DNA of 64,000 bases from Streptacidiphilus sp. ASG 303 (GTDB lineage: Bacteria; Actinomycetota; Actinomycetes; Streptomycetales; Streptomycetaceae), in the NCBI RefSeq assembly GCF_020991365.1, contig NZ_JAJLRA010000008.1, positions 186,001 through 250,000 on the forward strand. Reading direction: 5' to 3'. The stretch's first letter is position 1, and each line of letters opens with the position of its first letter. The translations under genes and the position numbers were made by a program. The notes beneath the pieces are model-generated. The model worked only from the letters and a program-made list of their open reading frames with translations, did not search any database and had not been told where the DNA came from. Of this stretch, positions 2,918-19,368 are shown one piece after another.

Positions 2918-3282
2918 CAGGCCTCCCAGGGGTCAAGGCGGATGACGTTACACGCGGGCGCTGGCGCGATCTTTGGCCGGTGGCCTGCCTGGGCTGGGAT
3001 CGAGCATGATCAGGGGCCGTACGCCTGTCGGCAATTCGGGCAGGTCCTGGGCCTGCCCGCCATGTGTCCGAGTGGCCTCCTCGTCGTGCATGACGCGGGT
3101 CCCGGACCTGGTAGGTGCCCAAAGATCGTGTCGGCGCCCGCCCCAACCCCCGGCCTTCCCTCGTCTGCGGGGCGCCCGGGCGGCCGCCGGAGCGGCACGG
3201 AGGCAGGAGTGACGGCGAGCGGACCGGCGCGCGCCGCGCCGCGCTGTGCGCGGCGCCTCGAACCCGCGGAGAAGGTTGTTGT

Positions 3283-3493
3283 TCAGCTGCTCATGGATGC
3301 CGGTTCCGGCTGGTGCGCCCGGGTCTCCTCGGCATGGTGCAGCGCGACTCTGACGGTCCGGCCGTTCGCATGGCTGAGCACGTCCATACGGCTGGGGAGG
3401 GCTTCGACCAGGGTGAGGTCTCGGCCACTGGTGGAGCCGTCGCCGGCTTGGCGGGCGTGGGGGATGCCGAGGGCTCCGCCGTTGTCGGAGACG
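3283..3493 (-). pseudogene. fragment of an RsbW-like ATP-binding regulatory protein
   Basis: On the minus strand the translation reads VSDNGGALG...GRDLTLVEALPSR...GRTVRVALHH. This resembles the C-terminal half of the HATPase_c_2 (RsbW-like anti-sigma) domain that is abundant in Streptomyces: the DNGG-type N/G box, a G-x-G-L-x-L-V-x-A-L helix and a terminal beta strand. The N-terminal half is missing: upstream sequence abruptly becomes the integrase relic on the other strand at about 3493. The region 2918-3282 next to it holds no gene that I could support. Confidence 0.5.
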
Positions 3494-3874
3494 GCCGGCG
3501 ACCGGTGGCAGGGCCGGGGCCTGGTCTTCGCGACGGCGAACGGCACGCCGATCGAGCCGGGGAACCTCAACAGCCACGGGTGCGGCGTCCGCGAGCGGGC
3601 CGGCCGGACCGCCCGGTTCCACGACCTCAGGCACACCGGCATCACGCTGCTGCTCGGCCTCGGTGCCCCGCCGCACGTGGTCCGCGACATCGTCGGGCAG
3701 AGTGCCCTGGAGGTGACGATGAACATCTGCGCTCACGTCGACCTGTCGAAGAAGCGGGCGGCGCCCGACCGGCTGGGTGGTCTCCGCGACGGGTGGCCCC
3801 CGTTGCCGTCGGCACTGCCGCCAGAACGCACCGGCGCCCCTGAACCGATCCCCGGTCCGGGACGTTCGTCCTGA
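3490..3874 (+). pseudogene. integrase C-terminal relic (catalytic Tyr replaced by Cys)
   Basis: The frame ending at 3874 gives AGDRWQGRGLVFATANGTPI..., then FHDLRHTGITLLLGLG and VVRDIVGQSALEVTMNICAHVDLSKK. This is the C-terminal catalytic domain of a tyrosine integrase and is similar in layout to the intact integrase at 22353. The HxxR motif is present, but the Tyr expected in the (I/V)YAH motif is Cys (codon TGC), and the N-terminal and core-binding parts are absent. It should be inactive. It reads directly towards a decayed tRNA-Arg 3' end, the normal place for such a gene relative to its attachment site. Confidence 0.75.
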
Positions 3875-3881
3875 TGAGAGG

Positions 3882-3950
3882 TGGCGCCCCCGGCAGGACT
3901 CGAACCTGCGACCAAGTGCTTAGAAGGGGCATACGCTCTGTCTAGCTAGA
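3882..3950 (-). pseudogene. decayed tRNA-Arg(UCU), probable old attachment site
   Basis: The complement carries a perfect T arm (GCAGG-TTCGAGT-CCTGC), an acceptor 3' strand CGGGGGC with CCA, and an anticodon loop CTTCTAA, which identify tRNA-Arg(UCU). The anticodon stem pairs at only about two of five positions, and the matching 5' acceptor strand GCCCCCG is missing. It cannot fold as a tRNA. Retention of a 3' tRNA part beside an integrase relic is what an att site leaves behind. Confidence 0.7.
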
Positions 3951-4336: not shown

Positions 4337-6298
4337 GTGCGTATCAGCCGAGTTCTTATCCAGAACTATCGCAATTTTCGCAAGCTGGAGATCAACCCAT
4401 TTCCTGCAAGTGCAGTAATTGTCGGCGAGAACGGAGTGGGAAAGTCAAATTTGCTCCGGGCGCTGAGGATCGTTCTAGACCCTGATCTCCCAGAAAGCGC
4501 TCGCATGCTCCGCAGCGAGGATATCTGTGATTACGCAGAGGTTGGTCTAGCTGAAGGCGTTGAGGTCCGGATTGAAGTTGATCTCACTGACTTTGAAGGA
4601 AACAGGAAGGCTGAGGCCGCCCTCGACGGGTGCTTCGTAAGCCTCGACCCTTTGACGGCCCGCATCACCTATTTCTTTCATCCCCTCAGGGGCATTGGAG
4701 AAGAAACAAAAGCTTCAGGCCTTACACGCGATGACTACACCTGGGAGGTCGGAGGAGGGCCCGAGGGGAAGCGAGATGCAAAATATCTGCGGCGCGACGT
4801 CCCCTTCACTGTCCTCCCTGCCCTGCGAGACGCAGTGGGCGACCTATCTCGTTGGCGTGACTCACCCCTGCAAGAACTTCTTGAAGTTCGCCCCCCTAGC
4901 AGGGACTCGCTCGAGCTAGCCGCACAACGCATCTCTGATGCCATGGATGAGCTTGCGAAGGCGCCTGAGCTGAGCGAGGTCTCGAAGGACCTTTCTCAGC
5001 GTTTGCAGTTGATGGCAGGAAATCGACTCTCTATTGAGCCGAATTTTGGGTTTGCCTCAAGTGACGCGGATAGGCTGCTGAGGGCGATCCGGATGTTTGT
5101 GGACTCGGCGCGGATTAGGAGTGTTGCTGACACATCCACCGGCGCCGCCAACGTCATCTATTTGGCATTGCTCTTGGAGCGCTTGAGCGGTCGACAGAAG
5201 ACTGACTCTATTTTGCAGTCCATCCTTGCTGTGGAAGAGCCGGAAGCTCACCTTCATCCGGTTCTCCAGCGGCAGGTTTTCCGTTATTTGCTCAAGCATG
5301 AGCCAGCGCTGATTGTTAGCACGCACAGCCCTAATATCGCTGCAGTATCACGGCTCGAGTCGCTGGTGCTACTACGACCTGGTTCTGACGGGTCCACTGT
5401 AGCTTCATACACTTCCAGGATTGAGCTCGAAGAAAGGCAGCATCAAGACCTGGAACGGTACCTTGATGTGAGCCGCGCTGAGATTCTATTTTGTTCAGCG
5501 GCCATCCTTGTGGAAGGCACCGCTGAAGTTTACGTAATCCCGGCCCTGGCTAAGTCTCTAGGATTCGACCTTGATTTCCACGGGGTGATCGTGGGGAATA
5601 TATCTGGAACGGATTTCAAGCCTTTCCGGACCTTGTTGGGAGAGTCCGCCCTAGCTGTTCCGCATGTCATTGTTACCGACGGAGACCCAACTAGTAAAAA
5701 GGGCGATTACATTCACTTGGGGTTGCGTCGGGCAGCAAAGCTTATTCCTGCGCCCAGGAAGGCGGAATTTGACATGCGTATCGAATCCCTCATCTCCGCC
5801 AAGGACACGGCTTCTAGTGCCCCCCTTAGGCTTGAGGCTGCTGAAGCGGATGTCTTCATTGGGCCGAAGACCCTAGAAGTAGATGTGGCCGGCTTGCTGC
5901 ATAAGGAGATGGTTCTCGCTCACACTGAACTAGAGGAGTCGACAAAGCTCCGAGTTAAATTCGACGAAGCTGTGTACGCCCTCAGGTCGGGAAGCGAAGA
6001 ATCTGAAGTTCAGGATGAGCTTCTGCGGCGGGTCAATCACGTCAGCAAGGGGCGCTTTGCCCAGCGTCTTGCTGCGCATGTGGAAGAAGCTGACCTAGCG
6101 TCCACCTTGGTGAGCCTTATTTCTAAGGTTCATGAAGAAGCTATGGATGCCAAAAGTGAGAGCGCTGAAGAGCGAGTGCAGCGCGCCCTTATTAACTATG
6201 CGCCCTATGGATACTTGCTGGCAGCGCTTGATAGAGTCTCTATTCTAGTGCGCGGGCACGGTCTATTTTCGGAATTCTCTGGAGTTGCGAATGTCTGA
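4337..6298 (+). CDS. OLD-family ATPase/TOPRIM endonuclease, GajA-like
   Basis: A 653-residue protein built as an N-terminal ABC-type ATPase plus a C-terminal TOPRIM nuclease, as in class 2 OLD nucleases and GajA of the Gabija anti-phage system. The Walker A is GENGVGKS at residues 30-37. STGAANVIYLALLLERL is the signature-like helix, VEEPEAHLHP the Walker B region, and VSTHSP the H-loop. The TOPRIM glutamate is Glu393 (LVEG) and the acidic pair is Asp448/Asp450 (TDGD). GTG 4337 was chosen because it directly precedes the conserved ISRVLIQNYRNF strand and follows GGGGGA. The helicase gene overlaps its 3' end by 8 bp. GC content is clearly lower than in flanking genes, suggesting transfer. It is longer than the founding GajA (about 580 residues). 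Confidence 0.85.
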   Translation: MRISRVLIQNYRNFRKLEINPFPASAVIVGENGVGKSNLLRALRIVLDPDLPESARMLRSEDICDYAEVGLAEGVEVRIEVDLTDFEGNRKAEAALDGCFVSLDPLTARITYFFHPLRGIGEETKASGLTRDDYTWEVGGGPEGKRDAKYLRRDVPFTVLPALRDAVGDLSRWRDSPLQELLEVRPPSRDSLELAAQRISDAMDELAKAPELSEVSKDLSQRLQLMAGNRLSIEPNFGFASSDADRLLRAIRMFVDSARIRSVADTSTGAANVIYLALLLERLSGRQKTDSILQSILAVEEPEAHLHPVLQRQVFRYLLKHEPALIVSTHSPNIAAVSRLESLVLLRPGSDGSTVASYTSRIELEERQHQDLERYLDVSRAEILFCSAAILVEGTAEVYVIPALAKSLGFDLDFHGVIVGNISGTDFKPFRTLLGESALAVPHVIVTDGDPTSKKGDYIHLGLRRAAKLIPAPRKAEFDMRIESLISAKDTASSAPLRLEAAEADVFIGPKTLEVDVAGLLHKEMVLAHTELEESTKLRVKFDEAVYALRSGSEESEVQDELLRRVNHVSKGRFAQRLAAHVEEADLASTLVSLISKVHEEAMDAKSESAEERVQRALINYAPYGYLLAALDRVSILVRGHGLFSEFSGVANV

Positions 6299-8153
6299 CC
6301 AGAAGACCGTGCGGCCCGTCCTGGCTGCTGAGATTGAGCAGCTCAACCCGGCTCAGCGCATGGCAGCAATGCACAACGGCGACCTGGTTGTTCGAGCAGG
6401 ACCGGGCTCAGGTAAAACGCGGACACTAGTCGCAAGAGTGGGCTACCTTCTGGAAAGCGAAATATCGCGGTACCGTGGTGTCGCAGCCCTAACTTACACC
6501 CGACATGCGGCCCAGGAAATTGTAGATCGCTTGGATCGTCTAAGTGTCAGGCCAGGACGTAGACTTACTGCAGGAACTGTTCATTCCTGGTGTCTTTCTG
6601 CAGTCCTCAGGCCGTATTCATACCTTGTAGGGCTTCCGTCGCCCGATGAATCTAAGCTCGTAGATGATAAATCCGGTGAATGGATTACTCTACTTCAGAG
6701 ATGCTTCGATGTAGCTGGTGCTCTTGAAAATCCCAGATACGAGAAAGCAGCCATTACTAGGCTTCGCCGGCGGATCGCTGCTGGATATGAGGTCCAAGCA
6801 GATGACCCGATGACGCAAGCCGCAATACTGGTCGATAGGGAACTCGAAAGGCGCGGTTGGATTGATTTCGACGCAATGGTCTCTCGCAGTCTAAAGATCA
6901 TCAATGAGAATCCCAAGATTGCGCGCCTAATCGTTTCTAGATACCCGTCTCTCGTAGTTGATGAATATCAAGACCTCGGCCCCGTCCTGCACAGGTTGGT
7001 AGTTACACTTCGGGATGAATTCGATATCCAGGTTTCGGCCTTTGGGGACGTAGACCAGGCGGTGATGGGATTTACTGGAGCTGAACCCGAGTTTCTGAAT
7101 GAGCTATCTTCCAAAGATAAATTTGAGACCATCTCTCTTCCGCTCAATTATCGGAGTGGCCAGGCTATCATCTCTGCGAGTCAGGCAGTGCTTAATGAAT
7201 CTCGTCCCTATCAAGCAACCCCCGATAGGGAAGATTTGGGAAGTATTGAGTTGGCTTACGTAGAGGACGGTGGTCTGTGGGATCACAGCAATGCAGTAAT
7301 GGAGTATATTGATGAATTTTTGGCCTCCGGATTTCCTTGTCATCAAATAGCTGTGCTGTACCCAAGGAAGGGGCCCCTGCTGGATGCGCTGCTGTACGCG
7401 TTCAAGCAAAGCAGCCATGCCTATGTGCATGAGGGTGATGAAAGCCTTCCGAGGAGCGATCTAACTGACTTCATCCGAACATGTGCGGCTCGCACCTTTT
7501 CCGGATTTCAACCGATCGGGAGCCTGGCTGAAAAAGACGCCTCCGACGTTGCAACCTTGCGTGGTATTTCTCGACGTTACGCCGAATTGCGACGAAAGAG
7601 CGGACTGGTGGAGCTGGAGAGCCGTGCTTGTGACGCTTTGATCGCAGAGGTCTGCGTGGCTGCCTCATGGGGAAGCTCTGGAGACCTTCTCAGTTGGCTC
7701 AGCTTTATGGTCGAAACTCTTGAACTTAAGGCAGTGGCGAACGCGAGCAACCGAATCGGGGATAGCGAGGATCTGAAGCTCTTTTTGGATCGGTGCGAAG
7801 AGCTTGAAATAACTTTTGAGGACATGTCCTCGGCCGCGATCCGAGCTGGCAAAGTGACGCTTACTACGTATCACTCAGCTAAAGGGAGAGAGTGGGACGT
7901 TGTAATCCTTCCAGGGCTTGTTGAAGGCGTGATGCCGGGATGGAGGTGGAACCAGCGAATGAAACGCTTTGTGGAGCCCTCTGGCAGGCAACTTTCCCAA
8001 GATCGAATGGCGTTTTATGTCGGGTTGACTCGTGCGCGTTCCTCCGCCGTCCTTGTATTTGGGGATTATTGGGAGGGGAAATATGGTTATGTAAATCGAT
8101 TTGGAATCTCGCGTTTTGCGCGAGACGTGATCGATCATATGAGCGCTCAGTGA
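6291..8153 (+). CDS. UvrD/PcrA-like SF1 helicase, GajB-like
   Basis: A 620-residue superfamily 1A helicase with all core motifs: I (GPGSGKTRTL), Ia (LTYTRHAAQEI), II (VVDEYQDL), III (FGDVDQAVMGFTGA), IV (LPLNYRSG), V (TYHSAKGREWDVV) and VI (VGLTRAR). ATG 6291 lies 6 bp after GGAG and overlaps the nuclease gene by 8 bp, so the two are translationally coupled. A UvrD-like helicase directly behind an OLD-TOPRIM nuclease defines class 2 OLD loci, i.e. Gabija, in which GajB acts with the GajA complex in phage defence. It lacks the extra length of housekeeping UvrD or RecB proteins. A stand-alone repair helicase is possible but less likely given the pairing and low GC. Confidence 0.85.
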   Translation: MSDQKTVRPVLAAEIEQLNPAQRMAAMHNGDLVVRAGPGSGKTRTLVARVGYLLESEISRYRGVAALTYTRHAAQEIVDRLDRLSVRPGRRLTAGTVHSWCLSAVLRPYSYLVGLPSPDESKLVDDKSGEWITLLQRCFDVAGALENPRYEKAAITRLRRRIAAGYEVQADDPMTQAAILVDRELERRGWIDFDAMVSRSLKIINENPKIARLIVSRYPSLVVDEYQDLGPVLHRLVVTLRDEFDIQVSAFGDVDQAVMGFTGAEPEFLNELSSKDKFETISLPLNYRSGQAIISASQAVLNESRPYQATPDREDLGSIELAYVEDGGLWDHSNAVMEYIDEFLASGFPCHQIAVLYPRKGPLLDALLYAFKQSSHAYVHEGDESLPRSDLTDFIRTCAARTFSGFQPIGSLAEKDASDVATLRGISRRYAELRRKSGLVELESRACDALIAEVCVAASWGSSGDLLSWLSFMVETLELKAVANASNRIGDSEDLKLFLDRCEELEITFEDMSSAAIRAGKVTLTTYHSAKGREWDVVILPGLVEGVMPGWRWNQRMKRFVEPSGRQLSQDRMAFYVGLTRARSSAVLVFGDYWEGKYGYVNRFGISRFARDVIDHMSAQ

Positions 8154-8365: not shown

Positions 8366-8827
8366 GTGCCAGAGACCAGCCCTAGAGGAACGTACCTTCA
8401 GGTCGCGAACGCGATTCGCAAGGGCCTTGCTGATGGTTCCATCGCCTCGAATGAGCTACTACCGTCTGAGGCGCAACTTATGTGTCAGTTTGGCGTGGCG
8501 CGCACGACGGTACGGCGAGCGTTTCGGGAACTGGAGCTTGCCGGAGAGATCGAGACGATTGCCGGTGTTGGCCGACGGGTGAAAGGTGCGGTTCAGGGGG
8601 CCCCGTTCCAGCGGGTGGTGGATGCGCTCGTTCGGCAGGTGCGCGACGGTTCGCTTCCGACGGGGGTGAAGATTCCGAGCGAAGCCGAGTTGGCGACGGA
8701 GCACGGTGTCACACGGAACACCGTCCGTCGGGCCGTACGGGAGCTGGAGGCTGCTGGTGTCATTGAGTCGAGGCATGGGGTCGGGCGCTTCGTTCGGCAG
8801 GCTCCGAGCGCAGAAGACCAACCGTAG
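8366..8827 (+). CDS. GntR-family regulator with two tandem winged helices
   Basis: This 153-residue protein is unusual in consisting only of two consecutive GntR winged helix-turn-helix domains. The first runs from about residue 8 to 68 (LPSEAQLMCQFGVARTTVRRAFRELELAG), the second from about 83 to 147 (IPSEAELATEHGVTRNTVRRAVRELEAAG). There is no UTRA or FCD effector domain. GTG 8366 follows GAGGAG by 6 bp. Single-domain GntR proteins such as KorSA control transfer genes of pSAM2-type AICEs, so this is a plausible element repressor, with the duplicated head perhaps acting as an obligate intramolecular dimer. The HD gene follows after 9 bp, suggesting an operon. Confidence 0.85.
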   Translation: MPETSPRGTYLQVANAIRKGLADGSIASNELLPSEAQLMCQFGVARTTVRRAFRELELAGEIETIAGVGRRVKGAVQGAPFQRVVDALVRQVRDGSLPTGVKIPSEAELATEHGVTRNTVRRAVRELEAAGVIESRHGVGRFVRQAPSAEDQP

Positions 8828-8836
8828 GCTGGTGGA

Positions 8837-9391
8837 ATGGGACTGACCGACTGGGCGTATGACCTTGCCGAATCCCTGCTCTCCGAGCGCTTGCCCCAAC
8901 GTTGGGCGCACTCTAAGCGAGTCCTTGCGCAGGCTCAGCGGCTGGCGCCGGCCCTCGGTGCTGATGCTGAGCTGCTGGCCGCAGCGGCCATTGCACACGA
9001 CGTGGGCTATGCCCCTGATGCCGTCGACACCAAGCAGCACATGATCGACGGAGGTCGGTACCTCCGCGACGTGGTCGGTGCCGATGCTCGAATGTGCAGC
9101 CTGGTGGCCTTCCACACGTCGTCGCCGTGGGAGGCGGCCGAGTTGGGACTGTCCGACGTGCTCGCCGAGTTCGAGCCGGTGGTTCCCGAGCTGGTCGACG
9201 CCATCACGTACTGCGACCTGACCAGCGGACCGACCGGCGACCTGGTTGACCCTGTTCGTCGTCTCGATGAGGTCTTGCGGCGATATGGCCCCGGCCATGT
9301 GGTGTTCCGGGCGGTGTCCGCGGCGCGGCCGAGTCTGCTGGAGATGGTCAGGCGGGTGGAGAAGCGGCTGGCGGCGGCCGGCGTCCGGTAG
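8837..9391 (+). CDS. HD-domain phosphohydrolase
   Basis: A 184-residue protein with the HD-superfamily metal site: His25 (RWAHSKRV), the His54-Asp55 doublet (AIAHDVGYA), a later His (VAFHTSSPWEA) and Asp (TYCDLTSG). The substrate is unknown; relatives hydrolyse nucleotides or modified nucleotides. It follows the GntR gene by 9 bp on the same strand and meets the Nudix gene tail to tail with no gap (9391/9392). This GntR-HD-Nudix-XRE group recurs in actinomycete AICEs to my knowledge, where Nudix proteins such as pSAM2 Pif limit redundant transfer, so the HD protein may share such a role (inference). Confidence 0.82.
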   Translation: MGLTDWAYDLAESLLSERLPQRWAHSKRVLAQAQRLAPALGADAELLAAAAIAHDVGYAPDAVDTKQHMIDGGRYLRDVVGADARMCSLVAFHTSSPWEAAELGLSDVLAEFEPVVPELVDAITYCDLTSGPTGDLVDPVRRLDEVLRRYGPGHVVFRAVSAARPSLLEMVRRVEKRLAAAGVR

Positions 9392-9862
9392 TCAGCCGAT
9401 GTGTGGCTCGGAGCGTTCCTGGAACCCGTGGTCGAGGCGGAGGCGTGTGGTGGGCGACATGTCGAGCCTCGGGAGTTCGCCGCGGGGAACCCACCGCACC
9501 TCGTAGGACTCCGAGCTGGCGGTGACGGTGCCGCTCAGGGGCCGGGCGCGGAAGCACAGAGAGAACTCCTGGCGTACCTCGCCGTCGGAGAATGCGATGA
9601 CGTGCCCAGGGTCGGTATAGATGCCGACCAAGCCGACCACCTCGACCTTGATGCCGGTCTCTTCCAGCACCTCGCGGACGACCGTGCCCGTGATGTTCTC
9701 CCCGATTTCCTGGACGCCTCCGGGCATGCCCCAGCGCCCGTTGTCCGAGCGCCGCTCCAGTAGCACTTCGTGCCGGTCGTTGACGACGAACGCCGTCACG
9801 GCCGGGACGATGCTGTTCGGCTTCGGGGCGGCCGGATCGTTGAAGTAGTCGCTGCGGCTCAC
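9392..9862 (-). CDS. Nudix hydrolase, possible Pif-like transfer-immunity protein
   Basis: A 156-residue Nudix protein. The Nudix box is complete: Gly49, Glu55 and REVLEETG at residues 63-70, so it should hydrolyse a nucleoside diphosphate derivative. PGGVQEIGE precedes it, as usual. The gene starts 4 bp after the XRE regulator stops, so the two form an operon on the minus strand. In pSAM2 the Pif protein, which prevents transfer between element-carrying cells, contains a Nudix motif; the location beside AICE regulators makes a similar role plausible, but this is inference. A house-cleaning function is the alternative. Confidence 0.85.
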   Translation of the reverse strand: MSRSDYFNDPAAPKPNSIVPAVTAFVVNDRHEVLLERRSDNGRWGMPGGVQEIGENITGTVVREVLEETGIKVEVVGLVGIYTDPGHVIAFSDGEVRQEFSLCFRARPLSGTVTASSESYEVRWVPRGELPRLDMSPTTRLRLDHGFQERSEPHIG

Positions 9863-9866
9863 GTTT

Positions 9867-10607
9867 TCACCTCGGGAGCGGTACGGATTCGGCCCAGACC
9901 TTCTCGAAGCTCTGCTGGTATGTCGAGACCAGCGCTGCTCCGGCGATCTTGCGCAGGTGCAACACCGGCGCCATAGGGGCGCTTACCCCATAGACCTGCG
10001 TGTTGACCAGCCACTCGTCATCCGAGCGATACAGCGAGTTGTGGAGCGTCGACCGGTGCTGCCGGAACTCGATCCCCGAGACGTCGTACAGCGGGCGGTA
10101 GAGCTTCATCACCTCACGGACCTTATAGGCGACGCCCGCGCCGATCTCTTCCTCTTCCCCACGCCGTGCGATCTCCGGGCTGTCGGGGTCCCCGAGCAGG
10201 ATCCGGGCCTGAACGCCGGACTGTGTTTTCAGCCTCAGTAGTTGCAGCCACCGGGGGTTCTCGGCGAGGAAGACGCCGGCGTGCACCAAGACGCCGATTT
10301 CCCGTTCGGCCCGGCCGAAGAGCTCCAGCCATAGGTCCGGCGGCACGTAGGACCGGTGCGGGTAGACCTTGAGCACTTCCGCATCTGCGGCGTCCTTCCG
10401 CTGGCCGTCGGGCAGGCCATCCGGCCACAGGTACGCCTCGTCCTCGCGCACGTACGCGGCGACGGCCAGCCGATGCCGGCGGTACGGGGCCCGCCCTTTG
10501 GTTATCCACCGTTCGACCGTCTTCGGGTCGACGCCGATGTGGTCCGCAAGCTGCTCGACGCTGATGCCGCGGGTCAGCATGGCTGAGCGCAGGCGTTCGT
10601 TCGCCAT
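9867..10607 (-). CDS. XRE-family regulator with C-terminal sensor-like domain
   Basis: A 246-residue protein with an N-terminal Cro/CI helix-turn-helix (residues 2-37, ISVEQLADHIGVDPKTVERW) and a roughly 180-residue C-terminal domain of unknown function containing VHAGVFLAENPRW and ILLGDPDSPE. Such proteins sit in or beside many actinomycete integrative elements. ATG 10607 was chosen because it follows AGGAG at proper spacing and starts the HTH; the open frame upstream to 10799 lacks domain character. Three GGGACGT boxes lie just upstream (10618-10668) and probably mediate autoregulation. It is co-transcribed with the Nudix gene. Confidence 0.82.
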   Translation of the reverse strand: MANERLRSAMLTRGISVEQLADHIGVDPKTVERWITKGRAPYRRHRLAVAAYVREDEAYLWPDGLPDGQRKDAADAEVLKVYPHRSYVPPDLWLELFGRAEREIGVLVHAGVFLAENPRWLQLLRLKTQSGVQARILLGDPDSPEIARRGEEEEIGAGVAYKVREVMKLYRPLYDVSGIEFRQHRSTLHNSLYRSDDEWLVNTQVYGVSAPMAPVLHLRKIAGAALVSTYQQSFEKVWAESVPLPR

Positions 10608-10617
10608 CCTTGCTCCT

Positions 10618-10668
10618 GGGACGTCTGGGGACGTACTCCGTGCCTCTGACGCTATCCGGGACGTCCCG
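10618..10668. promoter_or_regulatory. GGGACGT operator array upstream of the XRE gene
   Basis: Three copies of GGGACGT occur at 10618-10624, 10628-10634 and 10658-10664. The third is part of the perfect 12-bp palindrome CGGGACGTCCCG (10657-10668). They lie 11-61 bp upstream of the XRE start codon, ideal for autoregulation. The assignment of the XRE protein as ligand is inferred from position. Confidence 0.5.
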
Positions 10669-10779
10669 CCGCGTCCAGTTCTGCGGTCTCTGAGTCCCCT
10701 GTCAGTCCGGCACTCTGATGCCACGTCAGGAAAGACGGCGAATCCGGGAGAGGGCTTGACACCTGGATGAGACCGCGTC

Positions 10780-10818
10780 ACCGTGAGATGCACGGTCAAC
10801 CATGTATCTCATGGTTGA
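10780..10818. promoter_or_regulatory. two abutting inverted repeats, likely AICE operators
   Basis: The first is ACCGTG-n5-CACGGT (10780-10796). The second is TCAACCATG-n5-CATGGTTGA (10796-10818), a perfect 9-bp dyad. Both have 5-bp spacers and share one base. A TTGACA box lies at 10756-10761. They sit between the divergent XRE-Nudix and transfer operons, so a GntR- or XRE-type regulator bound here could control both directions. Confidence 0.5.
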
Positions 10819-10964
10819 GCGGCCCGAACAAGGCCGCTCCGACCTGCACAAACGCGCCTGCCGACGGAGGGCCTGCGCCCACCTCGGCAAGTGAAGGGGC
10901 CCCGGACGGACGGGGCCGAGGGACCCGGACCCCTGGTCAACCGGAGGGCGAGACCGAAAGGTCA

Positions 10965-11182
10965 TGTCGTCTGTGCCTGAAGCGGGAGCGCGCTCCCGAA
11001 GAGGACGACACCACTGGCTGTGCCGCCGAGACCGGGCGGCGCGGGCTACTGCTGATCAACCCATGTCTTTTCGCCCCGGCCCGTGTTTCCCGGCCGGGGC
11101 CTCTTTGCTCGGACTCTGCCGAGCGTCCCCGGCCTGTGAGTCGGGGCGGCTGCCTCCCGGCCAAGGAAAGCGCAGCCGCCCC
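10965..11182 (+). other. structured leader ahead of the transfer operon
   Basis: About 400 bp before the first transfer-operon gene contain no gene but strong secondary structures. TGTCGTC (10965-10971) pairs with GACGACA (11004-11010) and encloses the 16-bp palindrome at 10983-10998. GCCCCGGCC (11073-11081) pairs with GGCCGGGGC (11092-11100) and is followed by CTCTTT. GGGGCGGCTGC (11143-11153) pairs with GCAGCCGCCCC (11172-11182). The last two look like terminators or attenuators. An unrecognised regulatory RNA is possible. Confidence 0.45.
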
Positions 11183-11221
11183 GCTCCGGGCCGGTCCCGT
11201 CTAACCCAAGGAGATCGACCC

Positions 11222-11509
11222 GTGAGGACCATCGTCTCAGGTCAGTACGCCGCTACGGCGGCGGAGTTCGTTGAGCTGGCGCTCGGCATCGACACCGAGC
11301 TGTTCACCGGCCCGGCCGGCCCGGAGTCGCCCGAGGAGCGGGCGGCGCGGTTGGACGTGGCCGGCGCGGTGCTGGCGGACCTGCGCCGGGAGGACCCGGA
11401 GCTGGCCGCCTACGCCACCGCCCTGCTCGCCACCGCCCCCGTCCCGCTGCACTCCCGGCGTCCGACCGCTGCCCGCCGCCCCGCCACCCCGGCGGGGGTG
11501 GCGGCATGA
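11222..11509 (+). CDS. conserved AICE protein of unknown function, 95 residues
   Basis: First gene of the transfer operon. GTG 11222 lies behind AAGGAG (11206-11211), and the product starts VRTIVSGQYAATAAEFVEL. It is a mostly helical acidic protein with a basic, Ala/Pro-rich end (RRPTAARRPATPAG). I know similar small proteins from Streptomyces AICEs, always without assigned function. The next gene overlaps by 4 bp (ATGA). No catalytic motif or membrane segment is visible. An open frame runs further upstream, but it crosses the hairpins and lacks a ribosome binding site. Confidence 0.72.
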   Translation: MRTIVSGQYAATAAEFVELALGIDTELFTGPAGPESPEERAARLDVAGAVLADLRREDPELAAYATALLATAPVPLHSRRPTAARRPATPAGVAA

Positions 11510-11727
11510 GGACCGGACCGTTCCCCGCCGTGCTCGCCCGACTGCGGCTGCTGGCCGTGCTCGCCGGCCTGGCGTGGCTGCTGGGCATCACCCCCGCCGT
11601 CCCGGTGCGGCTGCTGCTGTGTGTCATGGGCGCCATGGTCCTGGCCGTGGACGTCCTCTCCGACGCCGCCCGCCCCACCGGCCCGGCCCGCACGCCGGGC
11701 CGCGACACCCGGGGAGGTGCCCGGTGA
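11506..11727 (+). CDS. small two-helix membrane protein
   Basis: A 73-residue protein with two hydrophobic segments (about residues 9-27 and 30-49) and a basic, Gly/Arg-rich tail, so it is likely an inner-membrane protein with the tail in the cytoplasm. It overlaps the preceding gene by 4 bp and the following by 4 bp (GTGA), so it is translationally coupled in the transfer operon. It could be an Spd-like spread component, but nothing in the sequence is specific. Confidence 0.65.
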   Translation: MRTGPFPAVLARLRLLAVLAGLAWLLGITPAVPVRLLLCVMGAMVLAVDVLSDAARPTGPARTPGRDTRGGAR

Positions 11728-11852
11728 CCGCAGCCGCCCGCGAGGCCGCCGCCCGCGCCGCCGAGGCGGCCAGGGCCGCCGCTGCCGCCGCCCACGCCGC
11801 GGCCGAGGCCGCCCGCCGGGCCCGCGAGGCCGCTACCGGGGGTGCCCGGTGA
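11724..11852 (+). CDS. 42-residue Ala-rich helical peptide
   Basis: GTG 11724 to TGA 11852, starting VTAAAREAAARAAEAARAAA and ending in GGAR. About half of the residues are alanine, with regularly spaced Arg and Glu, predicting one long amphipathic helix. The start overlaps the previous stop (GTGA) and the stop overlaps the next GTG at 11849, and a GGGAGG (11712-11717) precedes the start. Perfect coupling at both ends argues for a real gene despite low complexity; otherwise it would be an unexplained gap in a tight operon. Confidence 0.5.
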   Translation: MTAAAREAAARAAEAARAAAAAAHAAAEAARRAREAATGGAR

Positions 11853-12730
11853 AGCGCGGACCGAAGATCCTGCTGGTGCTCGGACTGCTGGCCGTGGTCG
11901 GCATGGCGTTCCGGGTCTCCTGGAACGCGCTGCGCGACGTGGCCCACGTCATCGGCGCGGACCCGGTCGCCGCCACCGTCTACCCGCTGGTGGTCGACGG
12001 CCTCATGGCGCTGGCGCTGGTGGCGGCCCTGGTGCTGCCGGAGGGCGACCGCCGGTTCGCGCTGCGGATCCTGGCCGGGTACACCGTCGCGTCGCTGGTG
12101 CTGAACTACGTGCACGGGCTGGTGCCCGGCCTGCACAATGCCGGCCGGGTGCGGCTGGCCGACTGGTCGCCCGCCAACTGGGCGCTGGTGCTGCTGGCCA
12201 CCTCGCTGCCGGTCGGCTCCATCTTCTACGGCTCCGACCTGGTCGCCAAAGTGCTGCACCACCGTCCCGCGACCGGCGAAGCACCGCAGACCGTGACGAA
12301 TCGGTCGGTGCCTGACCTGCCCGCACCGGCCGACCCCGCCCCCGAGCCGTCGGTCTACGCCCCGCCGCCCCCGGCCCCGACCGAGGCGGCGCCGGTCGTG
12401 CCGCTCGCCGCTCCTGTGGCCGACTCCCGTCCGACCGTGGCCGCCCGTGCGGTCCGGCCGCGCAAGCCGACCGGGAAGCTCCCGGCCGCCGCCCGGTCGC
12501 CCCGACCGGTCCGCACCCCGGACCAACTCCTCACCGAGGCGCGGGAGGCCACCGCCGGGTGGCCGGACCGGGAGCTGACGGCCGACCGCATCCGGGTCGC
12601 GGTCCGCACCTCCGCCGAGAGGGCCCGCACCCTGCGGGACGCCCTCAAGGCCGAGCGCGTCGCCGCCACCACCCCGGCCGGGCTGCACCTGGTCACCGAG
12701 GCCGCTCCGGATGCTGCGGCGGTTGAGTGA
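11849..12730 (+). CDS. DUF2637 membrane protein of the transfer operon
   Basis: A 293-residue protein. The first about 130 residues hold four hydrophobic segments of the DUF2637 type (LLVLGLLAVVGMAF, VYPLVVDGLMALALVAALVL, ILAGYTVASLVLNYVHG, WALVLLATSLPVGSIFYG). A Pro/Ala-rich linker follows, then a basic helical domain (about residues 220-285; TPDQLLTEAREATAGWPDRELTADRIRVAV) that could be a DNA-binding fold. DUF2637 proteins are typical of actinomycete mobile elements next to FtsK-like Tra and may help position the conjugation complex (inference). GTG 11849 overlaps the previous stop. Confidence 0.8.
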   Translation: MKRGPKILLVLGLLAVVGMAFRVSWNALRDVAHVIGADPVAATVYPLVVDGLMALALVAALVLPEGDRRFALRILAGYTVASLVLNYVHGLVPGLHNAGRVRLADWSPANWALVLLATSLPVGSIFYGSDLVAKVLHHRPATGEAPQTVTNRSVPDLPAPADPAPEPSVYAPPPPAPTEAAPVVPLAAPVADSRPTVAARAVRPRKPTGKLPAAARSPRPVRTPDQLLTEAREATAGWPDRELTADRIRVAVRTSAERARTLRDALKAERVAATTPAGLHLVTEAAPDAAAVE

Positions 12731-13101
12731 TGGGCGGCCCCCGGTTCTGGGACCCCGACGGGGAGCGGTTCGGCCTGCCGACCTACCCGTGGCGGATGGC
12801 CCCGGAGGGTCTGGCGACCCGGCGGCAGCTCCGTGCCGAGGGGCTGCGGCCCGGCGGCCAGGACGTGGCTGCGCAGATCCTCTGGCGCAACCGGCGGCGC
12901 GGCGTTCGCGCGGCTTACCTCTACAGGGTCGACCTGGCTCGCCCGGTGCGGCCGATGACCCCCGCCCGCGCCGCCGCACTCGCGGCGGCGATGCGGGCCC
13001 GCCGCACCTGCCCGGTCTGCGGGCGGGATGCGGGCTACGTCCTCCCCGCCCGCTACGGCACCTGCCTGCCCTGCGCGGAACCCGCCGCAGCCGCGGCCTG
13101 A
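12730..13101 (+). CDS. RRQRL-motif zinc-binding protein
   Basis: A 123-residue protein of the family NCBI names RRQRL motif-containing zinc-binding protein. The motif is seen here as RRQLRAEGLRPGGQD. The middle part is VAAQILWRNRRRGVRAAYLYRVDLA, and a C-terminal zinc ribbon has CPVCGRDAGY...CLPC. It is found in AICE transfer operons beside DUF2637 and Tra; the role is unknown and nucleic-acid binding is likely. ATG 12730 overlaps the preceding TGA; GTG 12727 is an alternative start. Confidence 0.8.
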   Translation: MGGPRFWDPDGERFGLPTYPWRMAPEGLATRRQLRAEGLRPGGQDVAAQILWRNRRRGVRAAYLYRVDLARPVRPMTPARAAALAAAMRARRTCPVCGRDAGYVLPARYGTCLPCAEPAAAAA

Positions 13102-13136
13102 GGAACAGAGCCACTTCCAGTTGATCCGGGGCGCGC

Positions 13137-13175
13137 CCTCGCTTGCCGGCTTCCGGCGCGCCCCGGCACCTCCAC
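13137..13175 (+). terminator. GC-rich hairpin just ahead of tra
   Basis: CGGGGCGCGCC (13137-13147) and GGCGCGCCCCG (13165-13175) form a perfect 11-bp stem with a 17-nt loop between the zinc-protein gene and the tra start. There is no U tract, so it could be an attenuator or a stem protecting the tra mRNA rather than a terminator. Confidence 0.4.
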
Positions 13176-13195
13176 TCATGAGAGAGGCACGCGAA

Positions 13196-15376
13196 GTGAA
13201 CCACGACGACCACAGCGCTGACGACGAGCTGTTCGCCCGTCTGGAGGCGGATCTGACCGCCGACTTCCCCGAGACACCGGGGGGTGAGGTGGTGGACCTG
13301 GGCAAGGCCCGCACCGCCCGTCGCCCCGCCGACGGCCCCGCCGTCGTGCCGGTGGTGGGCACCGCGGCGGACGCGGACGACGACCCGGACGACACCGTGT
13401 ACGTGGACGACCCGGCCGCCGCCCCCGCTGACGTGGCGGCCGAGCGGCGGCGGGAGCCGATCCTGCCGAAGTGGGCGAGCAACGCGGAGCAGTTCAAGGC
13501 CGCCGCGAAGTGGGCCGCCGGACAGGCCGCCTACGTCACCGCCTACCACGCCGCCCGCTCCCCGCTCTACGCTGCCCGCCTGACCGCCCGCGCCCCGCGC
13601 GGTGCCGCCCGGATCGTCCGCGGCGCCGGCCGGTGGGTGGCCGACACTCAGGGCGCGCCGATGCGGGCGGTGGCGGTGCGCAAGGAGGACGCGGAGCTCT
13701 ACCTGCGCCTGACCCGGCAGCGGGACGCCAAGGTGCGGCTGCGGACCCTGATCGCGGCTCTGGTCGCCGCGTTCGGCGTCGCGTTCGTGGCGGTGCTGCT
13801 GGTCATGACCCCCGGCTGGACCCACCTGGCGCTCGCTGCCGCCACCGTCGCGGCGCTGGGGTGGGCCGGGGCCCCGGCCGATCAGCCCCTGGTCACCCGG
13901 GCGGTGGTGAAGACCCGGGCGCCGCGGCTCACCTCGGACATCGTGGAGCGGGCGCTGCTGGCGCTCGGGATCGGCGGCATGGGCAAGGGGGAGATCACCT
14001 TTCCCGCCCCCATCACCCGCGACGGCCCCGGCTGGCGCGCGGACGTTGACCTGCCCCACGGCGTGACGGCGGGGGACATCATGGAGCGCCGCAAGCGCCT
14101 GGCCTCCGGGCTGCGTCGTCCGCTGGGGTGCGTGTGGCCGGAGGGCAACGCGGACGAGCACGAGGGGCGGCTTGTGCTGTGGGTCGGGGACAAGGACCTG
14201 TCCAAGGCGGAGAAGATCGCGTGGCCGCTGGCCAAGTCTGGCCGCCACGACCTGTTCAAGCCGGTGCCGTTCGGCCGCAACCCGCGCGGGCAGTGGGTCG
14301 CGGTGCCGCTGGTGCAGCACAACGTGCTGTTCGGCTCCCAGCCCGGCCAGGGCAAGACCTCCTCCGTGCGGGTACTGGCCGCCGGGGCGGCGCTGGACCC
14401 CACGGCGGAGATGTGGACGCACGAGCTGAAGGGTTCCGGCGACCTGGACCCCTTCGAGCCCATCTCCCACCGGTTCGTCTCCGGCATCGACGACGACTCC
14501 ATCGAGTACGCCGCCGAGTCCCTCACCCTGCTCCGCAAGGAGGTGATGCGCCGCACCGGCGCGCTGAAGAAGCTGCCGCGGGACCTGTGCCCGGACAAGC
14601 GCGTCACCCGCGAGATCGCCGACAAGCGGATCGGGCTGCACCCGCTGGTCTGCATCGTGGACGAGTGCCAGAACCTGTTCGCCCACGCCAAGGTGGGCAA
14701 GCAGGCCGGGGAGGACGCCGAGTTCATCATCAAGATCGGCCGTGCGTTCGGCGTCATCCTCATCCTGGCCACCCAGCGCCCCGACAAGGACTCCCTGCCC
14801 ACCGGCGTCTCGGGGAACGTGTCGATCCGGTTCTGCCTGCGGGTCGCCGGCCAGGTCGAGAACGACATGATCCTGGGCACCTCCGCCTACAAGAACGGCA
14901 TCCGCGCCACCACCTTCCGCCCCGAGGTCGACGCCGGCCTGGGCTACCTCGCCGGCGCCACGGCGACGCCGACCGTGGTGAAGACCGCCTACCTCGACAC
15001 CCCCGCCACCGAGGCCATCGCCAAGCGCGCCCGCGCCATGCGCGCCGCGGCCGGCACCCTCACCGGCCACGCCGCCGGGGAGGCGCCGGAGCGCTCCGAC
15101 CCGCACGCCACCCTGCTGGACGACCTGGCCGCCGTCTGGCCCGCCGGTGAGGCCCGGGTGTGGGGCGAGACCCTGACCGGCGCCCTGGCCGCCCTCCGCC
15201 CCGACGCCTACGCCGGGTGGGCCCCGGAGCAGCTGGCCGCGGCGCTGCGGCCGCTGGGCATCGAGCCGGGGCAGATCGGCCGCCGTATCGACGGCAAGAC
15301 CGTCAACCGGCGCGGCTACGACCGCGCCCACATCACCGCCGCGATCGCGGAGCGTGACCGGAACCGGTCCGCCTGA
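13196..15376 (+). CDS. FtsK/SpoIIIE-type conjugative DNA translocase (TraSA/TraB-like)
   Basis: This 726-residue protein is the single-protein conjugation motor of actinomycete elements, moving double-stranded DNA between mycelial cells. An acidic N-terminus precedes two transmembrane helices (about residues 182-225; LIAALVAAFGVAFVAVLLVM and the following segment). The ATPase domain has Walker A GSQPGQGKT at 380-388 and Walker B VCIVDE near 485-490, plus a TQRPD motif. The C-terminus (about 640-726) is a winged-helix region that in TraB reads the clt repeats. GTG 13196 has GAGAGG 8 bp upstream; ATG 13178 in frame is an alternative. CTAG-rich palindromes lie immediately downstream. It is likely controlled by the operators at 10780-10818. 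Confidence 0.9.
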   Translation: MNHDDHSADDELFARLEADLTADFPETPGGEVVDLGKARTARRPADGPAVVPVVGTAADADDDPDDTVYVDDPAAAPADVAAERRREPILPKWASNAEQFKAAAKWAAGQAAYVTAYHAARSPLYAARLTARAPRGAARIVRGAGRWVADTQGAPMRAVAVRKEDAELYLRLTRQRDAKVRLRTLIAALVAAFGVAFVAVLLVMTPGWTHLALAAATVAALGWAGAPADQPLVTRAVVKTRAPRLTSDIVERALLALGIGGMGKGEITFPAPITRDGPGWRADVDLPHGVTAGDIMERRKRLASGLRRPLGCVWPEGNADEHEGRLVLWVGDKDLSKAEKIAWPLAKSGRHDLFKPVPFGRNPRGQWVAVPLVQHNVLFGSQPGQGKTSSVRVLAAGAALDPTAEMWTHELKGSGDLDPFEPISHRFVSGIDDDSIEYAAESLTLLRKEVMRRTGALKKLPRDLCPDKRVTREIADKRIGLHPLVCIVDECQNLFAHAKVGKQAGEDAEFIIKIGRAFGVILILATQRPDKDSLPTGVSGNVSIRFCLRVAGQVENDMILGTSAYKNGIRATTFRPEVDAGLGYLAGATATPTVVKTAYLDTPATEAIAKRARAMRAAAGTLTGHAAGEAPERSDPHATLLDDLAAVWPAGEARVWGETLTGALAALRPDAYAGWAPEQLAAALRPLGIEPGQIGRRIDGKTVNRRGYDRAHITAAIAERDRNRSA

Positions 15377-15386
15377 CCGCCCGCCC

Positions 15387-15476
15387 GGGGTGCTAGCGCT
15401 AGCGGGCCCACCCCGCTAGCGCTAGCACCCCCGCTAGCACCCCACAGTGCTTCCCACCAGTGCGCTAGCGCATAGC
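15387..15476. repeat. CTAG palindrome cluster, candidate clt transfer site
   Basis: Ten bases after tra, a perfect 20-bp inverted repeat (15387-15406 and 15412-15431, 5-bp spacer) is built from GTGCTAGC and GCTAGCGG units. Further GCTAGCAC (15433-15440) and GCGCTAGCGC (15462-15471) copies follow within 40 bp. CTAG is rare in such GC-rich DNA, so the density is striking. Known TraB proteins bind 8-bp repeats (TRS) in clt, located near traB. The identity as clt is inferred; a strong terminator for tra is the alternative. Confidence 0.55.
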
Positions 15477-15520
15477 ACCCTACCTGCACAAACCCCCGAA
15501 ACCGGCCCCGGAGACCCCCT

Positions 15521-15772
15521 GTGACCCTCCTCCTGCTCGCCCTCGCCTGCCTGACCGTCGTCACGCTCGGTTACGCCGGGCTGTGTGCGGTCCAGCCGTT
15601 CGGGCCCTGCCGCGCCTGCCGCGGCATCGGCTTCCAGACCACCACCGACCGCAAGGGCCGCCTCAAGCGCGGCAAGGACTGCCGCCGTTGCAAGACCACC
15701 GGCCACCGCATCCGCACCGGCCGTCACCTCTACAACGCCTGGCGCCGCACCTACCGCGCCGGCACCCGCTGA
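15521..15772 (+). CDS. small membrane-anchored zinc-ribbon protein
   Basis: An 83-residue protein. GTG 15521 starts a hydrophobic N-terminal helix (residues 2-22). This is followed by a DnaJ-like zinc-binding pattern, CRACRGIGF and CRRCKTTGHRIRTG, and a basic end, YNAWRRTYRAGTR. The layout suggests a membrane-tethered nucleic-acid-binding protein. It sits after tra among small genes, where spd genes for plasmid spread through the mycelium normally lie, so an Spd-type role is reasonable but unproven. Confidence 0.7.
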   Translation: MTLLLLALACLTVVTLGYAGLCAVQPFGPCRACRGIGFQTTTDRKGRLKRGKDCRRCKTTGHRIRTGRHLYNAWRRTYRAGTR

Positions 15773-15813
15773 TCCCCTGCCCACGCACCGCCCGACCGAT
15801 CGGGAGTCCTGCC

Positions 15814-16005
15814 GTGCTCATCACCTTCTCGACCGCGTTCGTCTTCGGCCTGATCACCGGCGTCCTGGTGTGGACCAAGCGCGTCGGGGTCGGCACCGCG
15901 CTCGCCGTGTGGCTGTCCGGCTTCACCCTCGCCTCCACCGGCCTGGCCGGGCCCGTCAACACCGCCCTCGCCTCCGTCATCACCGCCCTGACCCAGCTCC
16001 ACTGA
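15814..16005 (+). CDS. Spd-like small membrane protein, 63 residues
   Basis: GTG 15814 follows GGGAGT by 8 bp. The product has two hydrophobic helices (about residues 3-20 and 27-60) and almost no soluble part, like the small SpdA/SpdD proteins found behind tra in AICEs. An AAAGGAG site follows its stop and serves the next gene 14 bp away, so the spread genes form one transcript. Assignment rests on size, hydrophobicity and position. Confidence 0.62.
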   Translation: MLITFSTAFVFGLITGVLVWTKRVGVGTALAVWLSGFTLASTGLAGPVNTALASVITALTQLH

Positions 16006-16019
16006 AAGGAGCCGCCGCC

Positions 16020-16247
16020 GTGTCCACGCTGCCCGCCCGGCCTGCGCCGCCCAGCGTCCGGCCGCTGGCCGCCGCCCACTTCAAGGACGCCCTGCGCGCC
16101 CTGGAGAGCGGCGACCGGCCCGCCGCCGTCCGCGCCCTGCTCGACATCGACCCCGAGTCCTGGACCGGCATCGAACACCGCCTCGCCCTGCTCGGGGAAG
16201 ACCTGGCCGCCCTGCTCACCCTCGCCGCCGCGGACGTGGCCCGGTGA
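16020..16247 (+). CDS. small helical AICE protein, 75 residues
   Basis: GTG 16020 follows AAAGGAG (16004-16010). The product is soluble and mainly helical (FKDALRALESGDRPAAVRALLDIDPESW, about residues 22-49). No catalytic motif is seen. It overlaps the following gene by 4 bp, so the two are coupled. Similar unnamed proteins are common behind tra in Streptomyces elements. The function is unknown. Confidence 0.62.
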   Translation: MSTLPARPAPPSVRPLAAAHFKDALRALESGDRPAAVRALLDIDPESWTGIEHRLALLGEDLAALLTLAAADVAR

Positions 16248-16519
16248 CCGGCGACGCCGTGTTCCTCGCCGCCGCCACCGCCCCCGCCGCCCTCCTCCTG
16301 CCTCCGCTAGCCGTCGCCTGGCGGCGCTCCGCACGGCAGGGCGCGGCTGTGCTGGCGATGCTCGCCGACGAACGCGCCAAGCGCGCCGCCGGGCCGGACG
16401 ACGACCCGCCGCCCCCGGACGGCGGCCAGCCCGCCGAGGCACCCGCGCACCTGGCCCCGGTCATCCCCCTGCACACCCGCACCGCCCCTGCGGCCGCCCG
16501 GCTGCGGCGCGCGATCTGA
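16244..16519 (+). CDS. small membrane protein, 91 residues
   Basis: GTG 16244 overlaps the preceding stop. One N-terminal hydrophobic helix (about residues 6-26) is followed by RRSARQGAAVLAMLADERAKR and a Pro/Asp-rich, disordered tail ending AAARLRRAI. It is a predicted single-pass inner-membrane protein with a cytoplasmic tail and probably the last gene of the transfer/spread operon. The function is unknown. Confidence 0.6.
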   Translation: MTGDAVFLAAATAPAALLLPPLAVAWRRSARQGAAVLAMLADERAKRAAGPDDDPPPPDGGQPAEAPAHLAPVIPLHTRTAPAAARLRRAI

Positions 16520-16565
16520 AGGCAGCCCCCGTGTCCGGTAGTCGCGGGCCGGGGGGCGCGGTGGT

Positions 16566-16985
16566 TCAGTGCAGCGTTCGCTGCCTCCACCACCGGCCTA
16601 TGTCCCACTCGTTCACCGTGCCGATGAACGGGCTTGTACGCCGCCGTAGCCGATTGTCCAGAGGCTCCAGAAGACGTCCGAGGTCTGTTCTGGCCCGCGG
16701 TGGCAAGCGGTGCAGCACTACGTCCAGTCGGTCTCGCGCTGTGAGCCAGTCACACCCCGGACACGGACAGGGAAAGAGATCCATACGGCCGGGCTCGCAG
16801 ACCGCTTCCCGGTAGCGGGCCAGGTCTGCCGCGACGTCACCCGGCAACAGGCCGTCGCTCTGCAACTCGACACGTCGGATGGCCACTCTGGTGGCGGCAG
16901 ACACCCCGGCGACCTGCCGTAGGGGTCTGCCAAAGCTCAATCTCCGGTGCTGAGCGCGAAGCAGATTCGGGCGCCTACGCGGCAT
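16566..16985 (-). CDS. hypothetical Cys-containing protein, opposite strand
   Basis: A 139-residue protein on the strand opposite to the operon. It has a basic N-terminus (MPRRRPNLLRAQHRRLSFG), a central CPCPGC cluster that could bind a metal, and a helical end (RLDVVLHRLPPRARTDLGRLLEPL). Codon use here is less GC-biased at third positions than in neighbours, and no gene fits the plus strand, which supports it as a recently acquired gene. No family was recognised. The 175 bp between it and the GGDEF gene hold a possible shared promoter zone but nothing I could define. Confidence 0.55.
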   Translation of the reverse strand: MPRRRPNLLRAQHRRLSFGRPLRQVAGVSAATRVAIRRVELQSDGLLPGDVAADLARYREAVCEPGRMDLFPCPCPGCDWLTARDRLDVVLHRLPPRARTDLGRLLEPLDNRLRRRTSPFIGTVNEWDIGRWWRQRTLH

Positions 16986-17160
16986 AGCCCTTTCGGTTCG
17001 CAGTCACAGCGTCATCCTTCCACGCTCACTGCAACCCCCGCTGCTCGATTAAGCCCGTCCACGCACGAGCCCCGGGACCGGTCGGCATCTCCCGCCAAGG
17101 TTCCGCCGCCCGCCCCGGGGCCCTACCTGATCCCGCAGCAACGAGACAGGAGATCCCAGG

Positions 17161-19263: not shown

Positions 19264-19297
19264 CCCGCACCGCGCAGGCACCCGGTCGCCAGAGCAA

Positions 19298-19312: not shown

Positions 19313-19368
19313 CTGCCAACTCCGGCCGGGCGCCTGCGTCCCTCCCGCTCGAAGGGAGCACCGCCCGC

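What the first reader, a model, noticed from the sequence alone, without database searches (positions are those of the whole stretch)
4337..8153. Gabija-like defence operon on a low-GC island
An OLD-type ATPase/TOPRIM nuclease (Walker A residues 30-37, TOPRIM Glu393, Asp448/450) overlaps by 8 bp with a complete UvrD-like helicase. This is the exact gene composition of Gabija. Base composition is far lower in GC than the surroundings and the operon sits next to integration relics, so it is probably a horizontally acquired defence system. The nuclease (653) and helicase (620) are both longer than founding GajA/GajB (about 580 and 490), so it may be a variant subtype.
Basis: partly seen in the sequence, partly recalled or inferred. 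Interest (0 to 1): 0.75.

Follow-up and report, generated by a model that had tools for sequence, protein, structure and literature searches.

The report
Ordinary long-form Gabija anti-phage operon
This is a two-gene Gabija bacterial defence system, expected to cut invading phage DNA, sitting on a low-GC patch between mobile-element remains in a high-GC genome; it is a divergent but regular member of a well-known family.

Summary
Two intact, overlapping genes lie at 4337-6298 and 6285/6291-8153 (+). The first matches PADLOC GajA at 577.5 bits, the second GajB at 495.2 bits. The Walker A lysine and TOPRIM residues E393, E397, D448, D450, E514 and K571 are invariant in a 40-sequence alignment. 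Of 80 related genome loci, 75 have a GajB-like gene directly behind GajA, one has it 1.2 kb away, one overlapping a broken gajA, and three end at the contig edge. The predicted GajA fold matches solved GajA best (Z 23.9). The operon is 53% GC against 70-77% around it and sits between a tRNA-Arg 3'-half scar with an integrase fragment and integrative-element genes. So it is a Gabija system, probably acquired horizontally.

The 'variant subtype' idea rests on length alone and is weak: in this set of relatives only 2 of 74 complete GajB neighbours are under 500 aa, so the founding B. cereus GajB is the short one. One modest open point: this GajB keeps the C-terminal segment where UvrD bears its separation pin, reported missing in B. 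cereus GajB, so helicase activity is worth testing. New member of a known kind; low interest.

The parts
4337..6298 (+). gajA: class 2 OLD nuclease, ABC ATPase plus TOPRIM, 653 aa (Walker A 30-37, E300/E301, H330, TOPRIM E393/E397, D448, D450, E514/D516, K571)
   Evidence: PADLOC PDLC00070 GajA 577.5 bits; Pfam AAA_15 and OLD-like_TOPRIM; conserved residues; fold
6285..8153 (+). gajB: UvrD/PcrA-like SF1A helicase, 622 aa from TTG 6285 or 620 aa from ATG 6291, overlapping gajA
   Evidence: PADLOC PDLC00117 GajB 495.2 bits; UvrD-helicase and UvrD_C; fold
3882..3927 (-). 46-bp tRNA-Arg(TCT) 3' half, an attachment-site scar
   Evidence: 45 of 46 bases match the intact tRNA-Arg at G000:C156; 46 of 46 in genome G003
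2942..3874 (+). ORF with a C-terminal tyrosine-integrase fragment (relic) abutting the scar
   Evidence: Pfam Phage_integrase, residues 190-267, 24.7 bits, below the curated cut-off of 27.1
8366..23555 (.). integrative-element genes: GntR, HD, NUDIX, HTH, FtsK/TraB-like 13028-15376, DUF3987 18990-21824, tyrosine integrase 21960-23555 beside tRNA-Phe 23638-23714
   Evidence: Pfam, tRNA; the TraB-like call is my reading of a Walker A motif and position, no Pfam hit at E 0.001

Best explanation
A Gabija anti-phage system. GajA, an ABC-ATPase/TOPRIM (class 2 OLD) nuclease, assembles with the UvrD-like GajB. High NTP/dNTP keeps the complex quiet; when a replicating phage depletes nucleotides, the TOPRIM site nicks or cuts DNA by two-metal catalysis and stops phage replication. 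Shown here: gene pair, domains, catalytic residues, predicted fold, conserved pairing, island context. Inferred from B. cereus Gabija (PMC8136825, PMC10781630, PMC10822852, passages): complex formation, nucleotide gating, DNA cutting, phage defence. The operon probably came from a lower-GC donor on a mobile element (inference).
For: GajA and GajB models win by wide margins: the 25 best-listed PADLOC hits of GajA (of 151) are all GajA models, best 577.5 bits; GajB scores 495.2 bits against 154.8 for the best non-Gabija helicase model among the 25 listed of 54. E393, D448, D450, E514 and K571 are invariant in 14 and in 40 sequences, E397 in the 40 and nearly so in the 14; K571 aligns with the KGRFAQ of XccOLD and BpOLD. 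A GajB relative follows GajA in 13 of 13 unbroken family-genome and plasmid loci looked at and directly in 75 of 80 genome loci, the other five being one at 1.2 kb, one overlapping a broken gajA and three cut by the contig end. GajA model pLDDT 87.5; best solved match is GajA, Z 23.9, 511 aligned, rmsd 4.4. GajB model pLDDT 89.7. Low GC and integration relics.
Against: Identity is modest: highest 47% to any of 52 other GajA rows, on a long branch of 1.01, and only stretches match B. cereus GajA and GajB by phmmer. The GajB model resembles UvrD/PcrA/Rep (Z 35-37) more than B. cereus GajB (Z 22.1; Foldseek rank 50, TM 0.31). None of five literature searches listed a phage test of this lineage. 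Promoter-like sites are no more than in shuffles (3 against 2.5).
Confidence: 0.93

Rival explanations
1. A class 2 OLD nuclease and a UvrD-like helicase that serve DNA repair or element maintenance (replication, stability of the integrative element) rather than phage defence.
For: The operon lies between mobile-element remains, and GajB is closer in fold to UvrD/PcrA than to B. cereus GajB. Relatives occur on many plasmids (459 records).
Against: The gene pair is patchy (8 of 394 family genomes sampled, own included), mobile, and scores as Gabija on both genes; a repair gene would be expected to be core. A review treats class 2 OLD and GajA as synonymous (PMC10568477, passages).
Confidence: 0.06
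2. A decayed, non-functional copy left on the island.
For: The neighbouring integrase is a fragment and the GajA branch is long (1.01). Another family genome, G131, has a broken copy.
Against: Both frames are intact, catalytic and helicase motif residues are kept, and both proteins are predicted to fold with high confidence.
Confidence: 0.05

Closest known systems
Gabija GajA/GajB of Bacillus cereus VD045 (PDB 8SM3, 8J4T, 8JQB)
   Same: Gene pair, domains, TOPRIM E-DxD residues (E393/D448/D450 fall on E379/D432/D434), ATPase Walker A and H330, overall GajA fold
   Different: GajA 653 against 578 aa; GajB 620 against 494 aa with a C-terminal segment beyond the end of the profile match to the solved GajB (match stops at 576 of 603, but runs to 598-599 in UvrD/PcrA)
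Class 2 OLD nucleases XccOLD and BpOLD (PDB 6NJV, 6NK8)
   Same: Closest solved relatives of the TOPRIM half by sequence (E 8.2e-27 and 5.1e-22), including the TLE and KGRFAQ motifs
   Different: The entries hold only the C-terminal halves
Gabija operons of Streptomyces plasmids and of the host's family
   Same: 41-47% identity in GajA, same gene order, shared C-terminal tail
   Different: Their operon GC is 64-69%, near that of their flanks, while this copy is at 53%

Membership tests
Gabija | GajA: OLD-type ABC ATPase plus TOPRIM nuclease | tested here: met
   PDLC00070 577.5 bits; Pfam AAA_15 and OLD-like_TOPRIM; GajA fold
Gabija | GajB: UvrD/PcrA/Rep-like helicase encoded directly beside GajA | tested here: met
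   PDLC00117 495.2 bits; overlap of 8 or 14 bp by start codon
Gabija | TOPRIM catalytic residues (E379, D432, D434, D511, K541 of B. cereus GajA) | tested here: met
   E393, D448, D450 by alignment; E514 and K571 invariant; pairing these two with D511 and K541 is inferred from order and from XccOLD
Gabija | No reverse transcriptase or HNH partner (separates it from retron and Septu systems) | tested here: met
   None among ten flanking ORFs scanned with Pfam, the integrase-fragment ORF on the left and GntR on the right included, nor ten scanned with PADLOC; no Rfam hit at E 0.1 in 3500-9000. Not every small ORF was scanned
Gabija | GajA-GajB 4:4 complex | not testable with these tools
   No prediction of complexes is offered
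Gabija | Phage defence | not testable with these tools
   Needs phage challenge

The most novel reading that the evidence does not exclude
The long-form GajB of this clade is a true DNA helicase: it keeps a UvrD-like C-terminal segment at the separation-pin position (two short strands, residues 594-595 and 601-602 of the model) that the B. cereus GajB is reported to lack. Gabija would then come in two mechanistic kinds, one with an unwinding GajB that feeds DNA to GajA and one with a GajB reduced to an ATP-sensing partner.
Probability: 0.2. Interest if true: 0.45.

Novelty: new member of a known kind. Interest (0 to 1): 0.15.

Why it matters
It adds a divergent Gabija of unusually low GC to a common defence family, in a setting of integrative-element remains. 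Its wider use is as a test case for whether long-form GajB proteins unwind DNA, since the GajB biochemistry I saw (passages of PMC10681800 and PMC10822852) was done on the short B. cereus GajB.

Tried and rejected
Retron Eco8, Septu PtuA and class 1 OLD were considered for GajA. NCBIfam retron_eff_Eco8 and PtuA hits are far below their cut-offs (49.4 of 250 bits and 45.4 of 500), and no reverse transcriptase or HNH gene showed among the flanking ORFs scanned. Ordinary UvrD, PcrA or Rep for GajB was rejected: the four best NCBIfam models of these score 113.7-146.1 bits against cut-offs of 911-1144.

An att repeat linking the tRNA-Phe 3' end to the left side of the island was sought: no shared 15-mer within 1-23000, and the 29-base tRNA-Phe end with up to 3 mismatches has no second copy on this contig. 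So the left border of the integrative element stays open, and I cannot say whether Gabija is its cargo. Promoter and terminator scans gave no excess over shuffles; no Rfam family at E up to 0.1. The single-protein scan of genome contigs found no relative and was repeated with an alignment. A motif RGIS in a low-confidence stretch of GajB looks a little like the UvrD GIG motif, but the profile leaves the UvrD GIG stretch unaligned, so it carries no weight. The UvrD-like fold match is stronger than the GajB match for the helicase; I did not take this as evidence against GajB, because the sequence models decide clearly. A second match to GajA in the same genome (30% over residues 188-450, E 8.9e-4) was not followed.

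Rows left out: the structure alignments used the window protein plus 39 (GajA) or 38 (GajB) of the 80 loci, which are themselves the best 80 of 504 confirmed. The GajA length count (76 of 80) leaves out L029, L038, L070 and L095. The GajB count (75) includes one partial frame (L029) and two rows where the best helicase hit is not the neighbour (L092, L105); one search recounts neighbours only (74, without the partial frames of L088 and L091). In L029 gajA is broken into two frames and a GajB-like frame overlaps its end, outside my gap limit. Viral contigs: a GajB-like gene near GajA in 56 of 70 loci; of the other 14, four end at the contig edge, and of the remaining ten, nine have GajA scores below 40 bits and one 83 bits.
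Full report
What is there. The window is from a high-GC genome, actinobacterial by inference from its GC, its integrative-element genes and its Gabija relatives (70.0% GC for 1-4000, 76.6% for 9001-64000; the operon is 53.3%, with third-position GC 56.1% in gajA and 50.6% in gajB). Two intact genes on the + strand overlap at 6285/6291-6298. The first encodes 653 aa, the second 620 or 622 aa depending on the start.

What the genes are. Against PADLOC, the best match of the first is GajA (PDLC00070, 577.5 bits, residues 2-600 on model positions 2-593 of 596) and of the second GajB (PDLC00117, 495.2 bits, residues 11-620 on 5-601 of 604). The 25 hits listed (of 151) are all GajA for the first; for the second the 25 listed (of 54) are GajB except one reverse-transcriptase-associated helicase model at 154.8 bits. 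Pfam gives AAA_15 and OLD-like_TOPRIM for the first, UvrD-helicase and UvrD_C for the second. Retron, Septu and housekeeping helicase models of NCBIfam stay far below their cut-offs. By sequence, the closest solved structures are the C-terminal halves of the class 2 OLD nucleases of Xanthomonas and Burkholderia, followed by Thermus OLD and B. cereus GajA.

Catalytic residues. In alignment with B. cereus GajA, E393 falls on E379, and D448/D450 on the DxD that PMC10781630 names D432/D434 (paper passages). E379, D511 and K541 of B. cereus GajA were shown to be needed for cutting (PMC8136825, passages); PMC10822852 (passages) lists E379, E383, D432, D434, D511, D513 and K541 as the site. Here K36, H330, E393, E397, D448, D450, E514 and K571 are invariant in an alignment of the window protein with 39 relatives from several phyla. 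D516 is nearly invariant in the 14-row alignment and not listed among conserved columns in the 40-row one. Pairing E514/D516 and K571 with D511/D513 and K541 is inferred from order and from the XccOLD alignment, since the printed B. cereus alignment ends before them.

Pairing. Among 394 whole genomes sampled from the same family, 8 (own included) hold a GajA match at E up to 1e-40; the foreign ones are at 43-47% identity. One of these, G131, has its copy broken over two contigs with a stop inside. In the six unbroken foreign loci and in seven plasmid loci looked at (six from Streptomyces, one from Rhodobacter; 459 plasmid records matched in all), a GajB relative lies directly downstream: 13 of 13. 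In genome contigs, 504 relatives were confirmed and the best 80 kept. Of these 80, 75 have a GajB-like gene directly behind or overlapping, one (L096) has it 1.2 kb away, one (L029) has it overlapping a broken gajA, and three end at the contig edge.

Length and 'variant subtype'. GajA in 76 loci has a median of 598.5 aa (529-692; 11 of 76 at 653 or more). In 74 complete GajB neighbours the median is 602 aa, with 54 at 590 or more, 15 at 620 or more and 2 under 500 (starts mechanical). So within this set, which leans towards the window's own relatives, the 494-aa B. cereus GajB would be among the shortest, and the window pair is at the long end of a normal range. The extra GajA length is mostly a C-terminal tail (about 600-653) that the Streptomyces and family relatives share and the Rhodobacter protein lacks. 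In the model it is helical (587-602, 610-621, 625-639), and the aligned range of the BpOLD C-terminal region reaches model residue 639. A tree of 53 GajA proteins puts the window protein on a long branch (1.01) inside a group of 15 rows (99/99) made of family genomes, Streptomyces and Mycolicibacterium, nearest to three proteins from two family genomes and a Streptomyces plasmid (98/94). That is a divergent lineage within a known family, not a new subtype.

Structure. The GajA model (pLDDT 87.5) matches solved GajA best (8X5I chain D, Z 23.9, 511 aligned, rmsd 4.4; 8SM3, Z 23.5) and also class 2 and class 1 OLD proteins (Foldseek ranks GajA first too). The GajB model (pLDDT 89.7) matches UvrD/PcrA/Rep (Z 35-37) better than B. 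cereus GajB (8SM3 chain B, Z 22.1, 446 aligned, rmsd 10.2; Foldseek rank 50). PMC10681800 (abstract and passages) reports that B. cereus GajB lacks the gating helix, GIG motif and separation pin of UvrD and did not unwind DNA. A profile of 39 GajB proteins aligns to UvrD and PcrA up to position 598-599 of 603 but to B. cereus GajB only up to 576, and the window model has two short strands at 594-595 and 601-602, where I recall the UvrD pin lies. The pairing of these strands was not inspected. The UvrD GIG stretch is not aligned. So the long form seems to keep part of what the short form lost. Whether it unwinds DNA is open.

Context. At 3882-3927 lies a 46-bp 3' half of tRNA-Arg(TCT) in minus orientation; the intact gene, 45 of 46 bases the same, is on another contig of the same genome. 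It abuts an ORF (2942-3874) with a C-terminal tyrosine-integrase fragment. To the left is an IS transposase (DDE_Tnp_4, 1518-2267) with partial or diverged copies elsewhere in the genome. To the right are GntR, HD, NUDIX and HTH genes, an FtsK/TraB-like gene (no Pfam hit; my reading of its Walker motif and position), a DUF3987 protein and a tyrosine integrase next to tRNA-Phe: the usual parts of an actinomycete integrative and conjugative element (name recalled). No second att copy for tRNA-Phe was found on the contig. The 14 relatives' operons measured have 59-69% GC, close to their flanks, so the 53% here points to a donor of lower GC rather than to a property of the family.

Mechanism. From the B. 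cereus work (PMC8136825, PMC10781630, PMC10822852, passages) the likely action is a GajA tetramer braced by GajB, held off by normal NTP and dNTP levels and released when phage replication and transcription drain them, cutting DNA by the two-metal TOPRIM site. None of these steps was tested for this protein pair.

Verdict. A Gabija system, intact, probably horizontally acquired, ordinary in kind. Papers: PMC8136825, PMC10781630, PMC10822852, PMC10681800, PMC10568477 and PMC12935923 were seen as search listings and passages only. PMC12935923 (passages) reports a Gabija from Providencia with a 736-aa GajA that is also longer at the C-terminus and that protected against T4, so an extended GajA is already in print. 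Searches for Gabija with Streptomyces, actinobacteria or actinomycete integrative elements listed nine entries (eight different papers), among them papers on Rhodococcus and Clavibacter; by title and abstract start none is about this lineage, and none of them was opened.

Noticed in passing
window 3882-3927: 46-bp tRNA-Arg(TCT) 3' half left as an attachment scar beside an integrase fragment; the intact tRNA-Arg gene lies on another contig (45 of 46 bases the same).
   Followed up: partly
window 8366-23555: Genes of an apparent actinomycete integrative and conjugative element ending in an integrase beside tRNA-Phe; its left border was not found.
   Followed up: partly
window 1518-2267: DDE_Tnp_4 insertion-sequence transposase with diverged or partial copies on other contigs of the genome (C114, C11, C141).
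   Followed up: no
L017 and L018 (genome G131); L029: A family relative has its GajA split over two contigs with an in-frame stop, and in Streptomyces torulosus (L029) gajA is in two frames, so the system is probably disrupted there or the assembly is faulty.
   Followed up: no
L185, L186 (G000:C118:80266 and 82462): Two further exact copies of the 29-base tRNA-Phe 3' end, 2.2 kb apart, with an integrase-like stretch between them, suggest a second element or its relic at a tRNA-Phe site.
   Followed up: no
L020-L024: Five Streptomyces linear plasmids carry Gabija with the same 14-bp overlap; two of them (L020, L024) have DprA and ComF genes just upstream.
   Followed up: no
L002 (G000:C189:125614-126447): A weak second GajA match (30%, E 8.9e-4) on the same contig, perhaps another OLD-type protein.
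   Followed up: no
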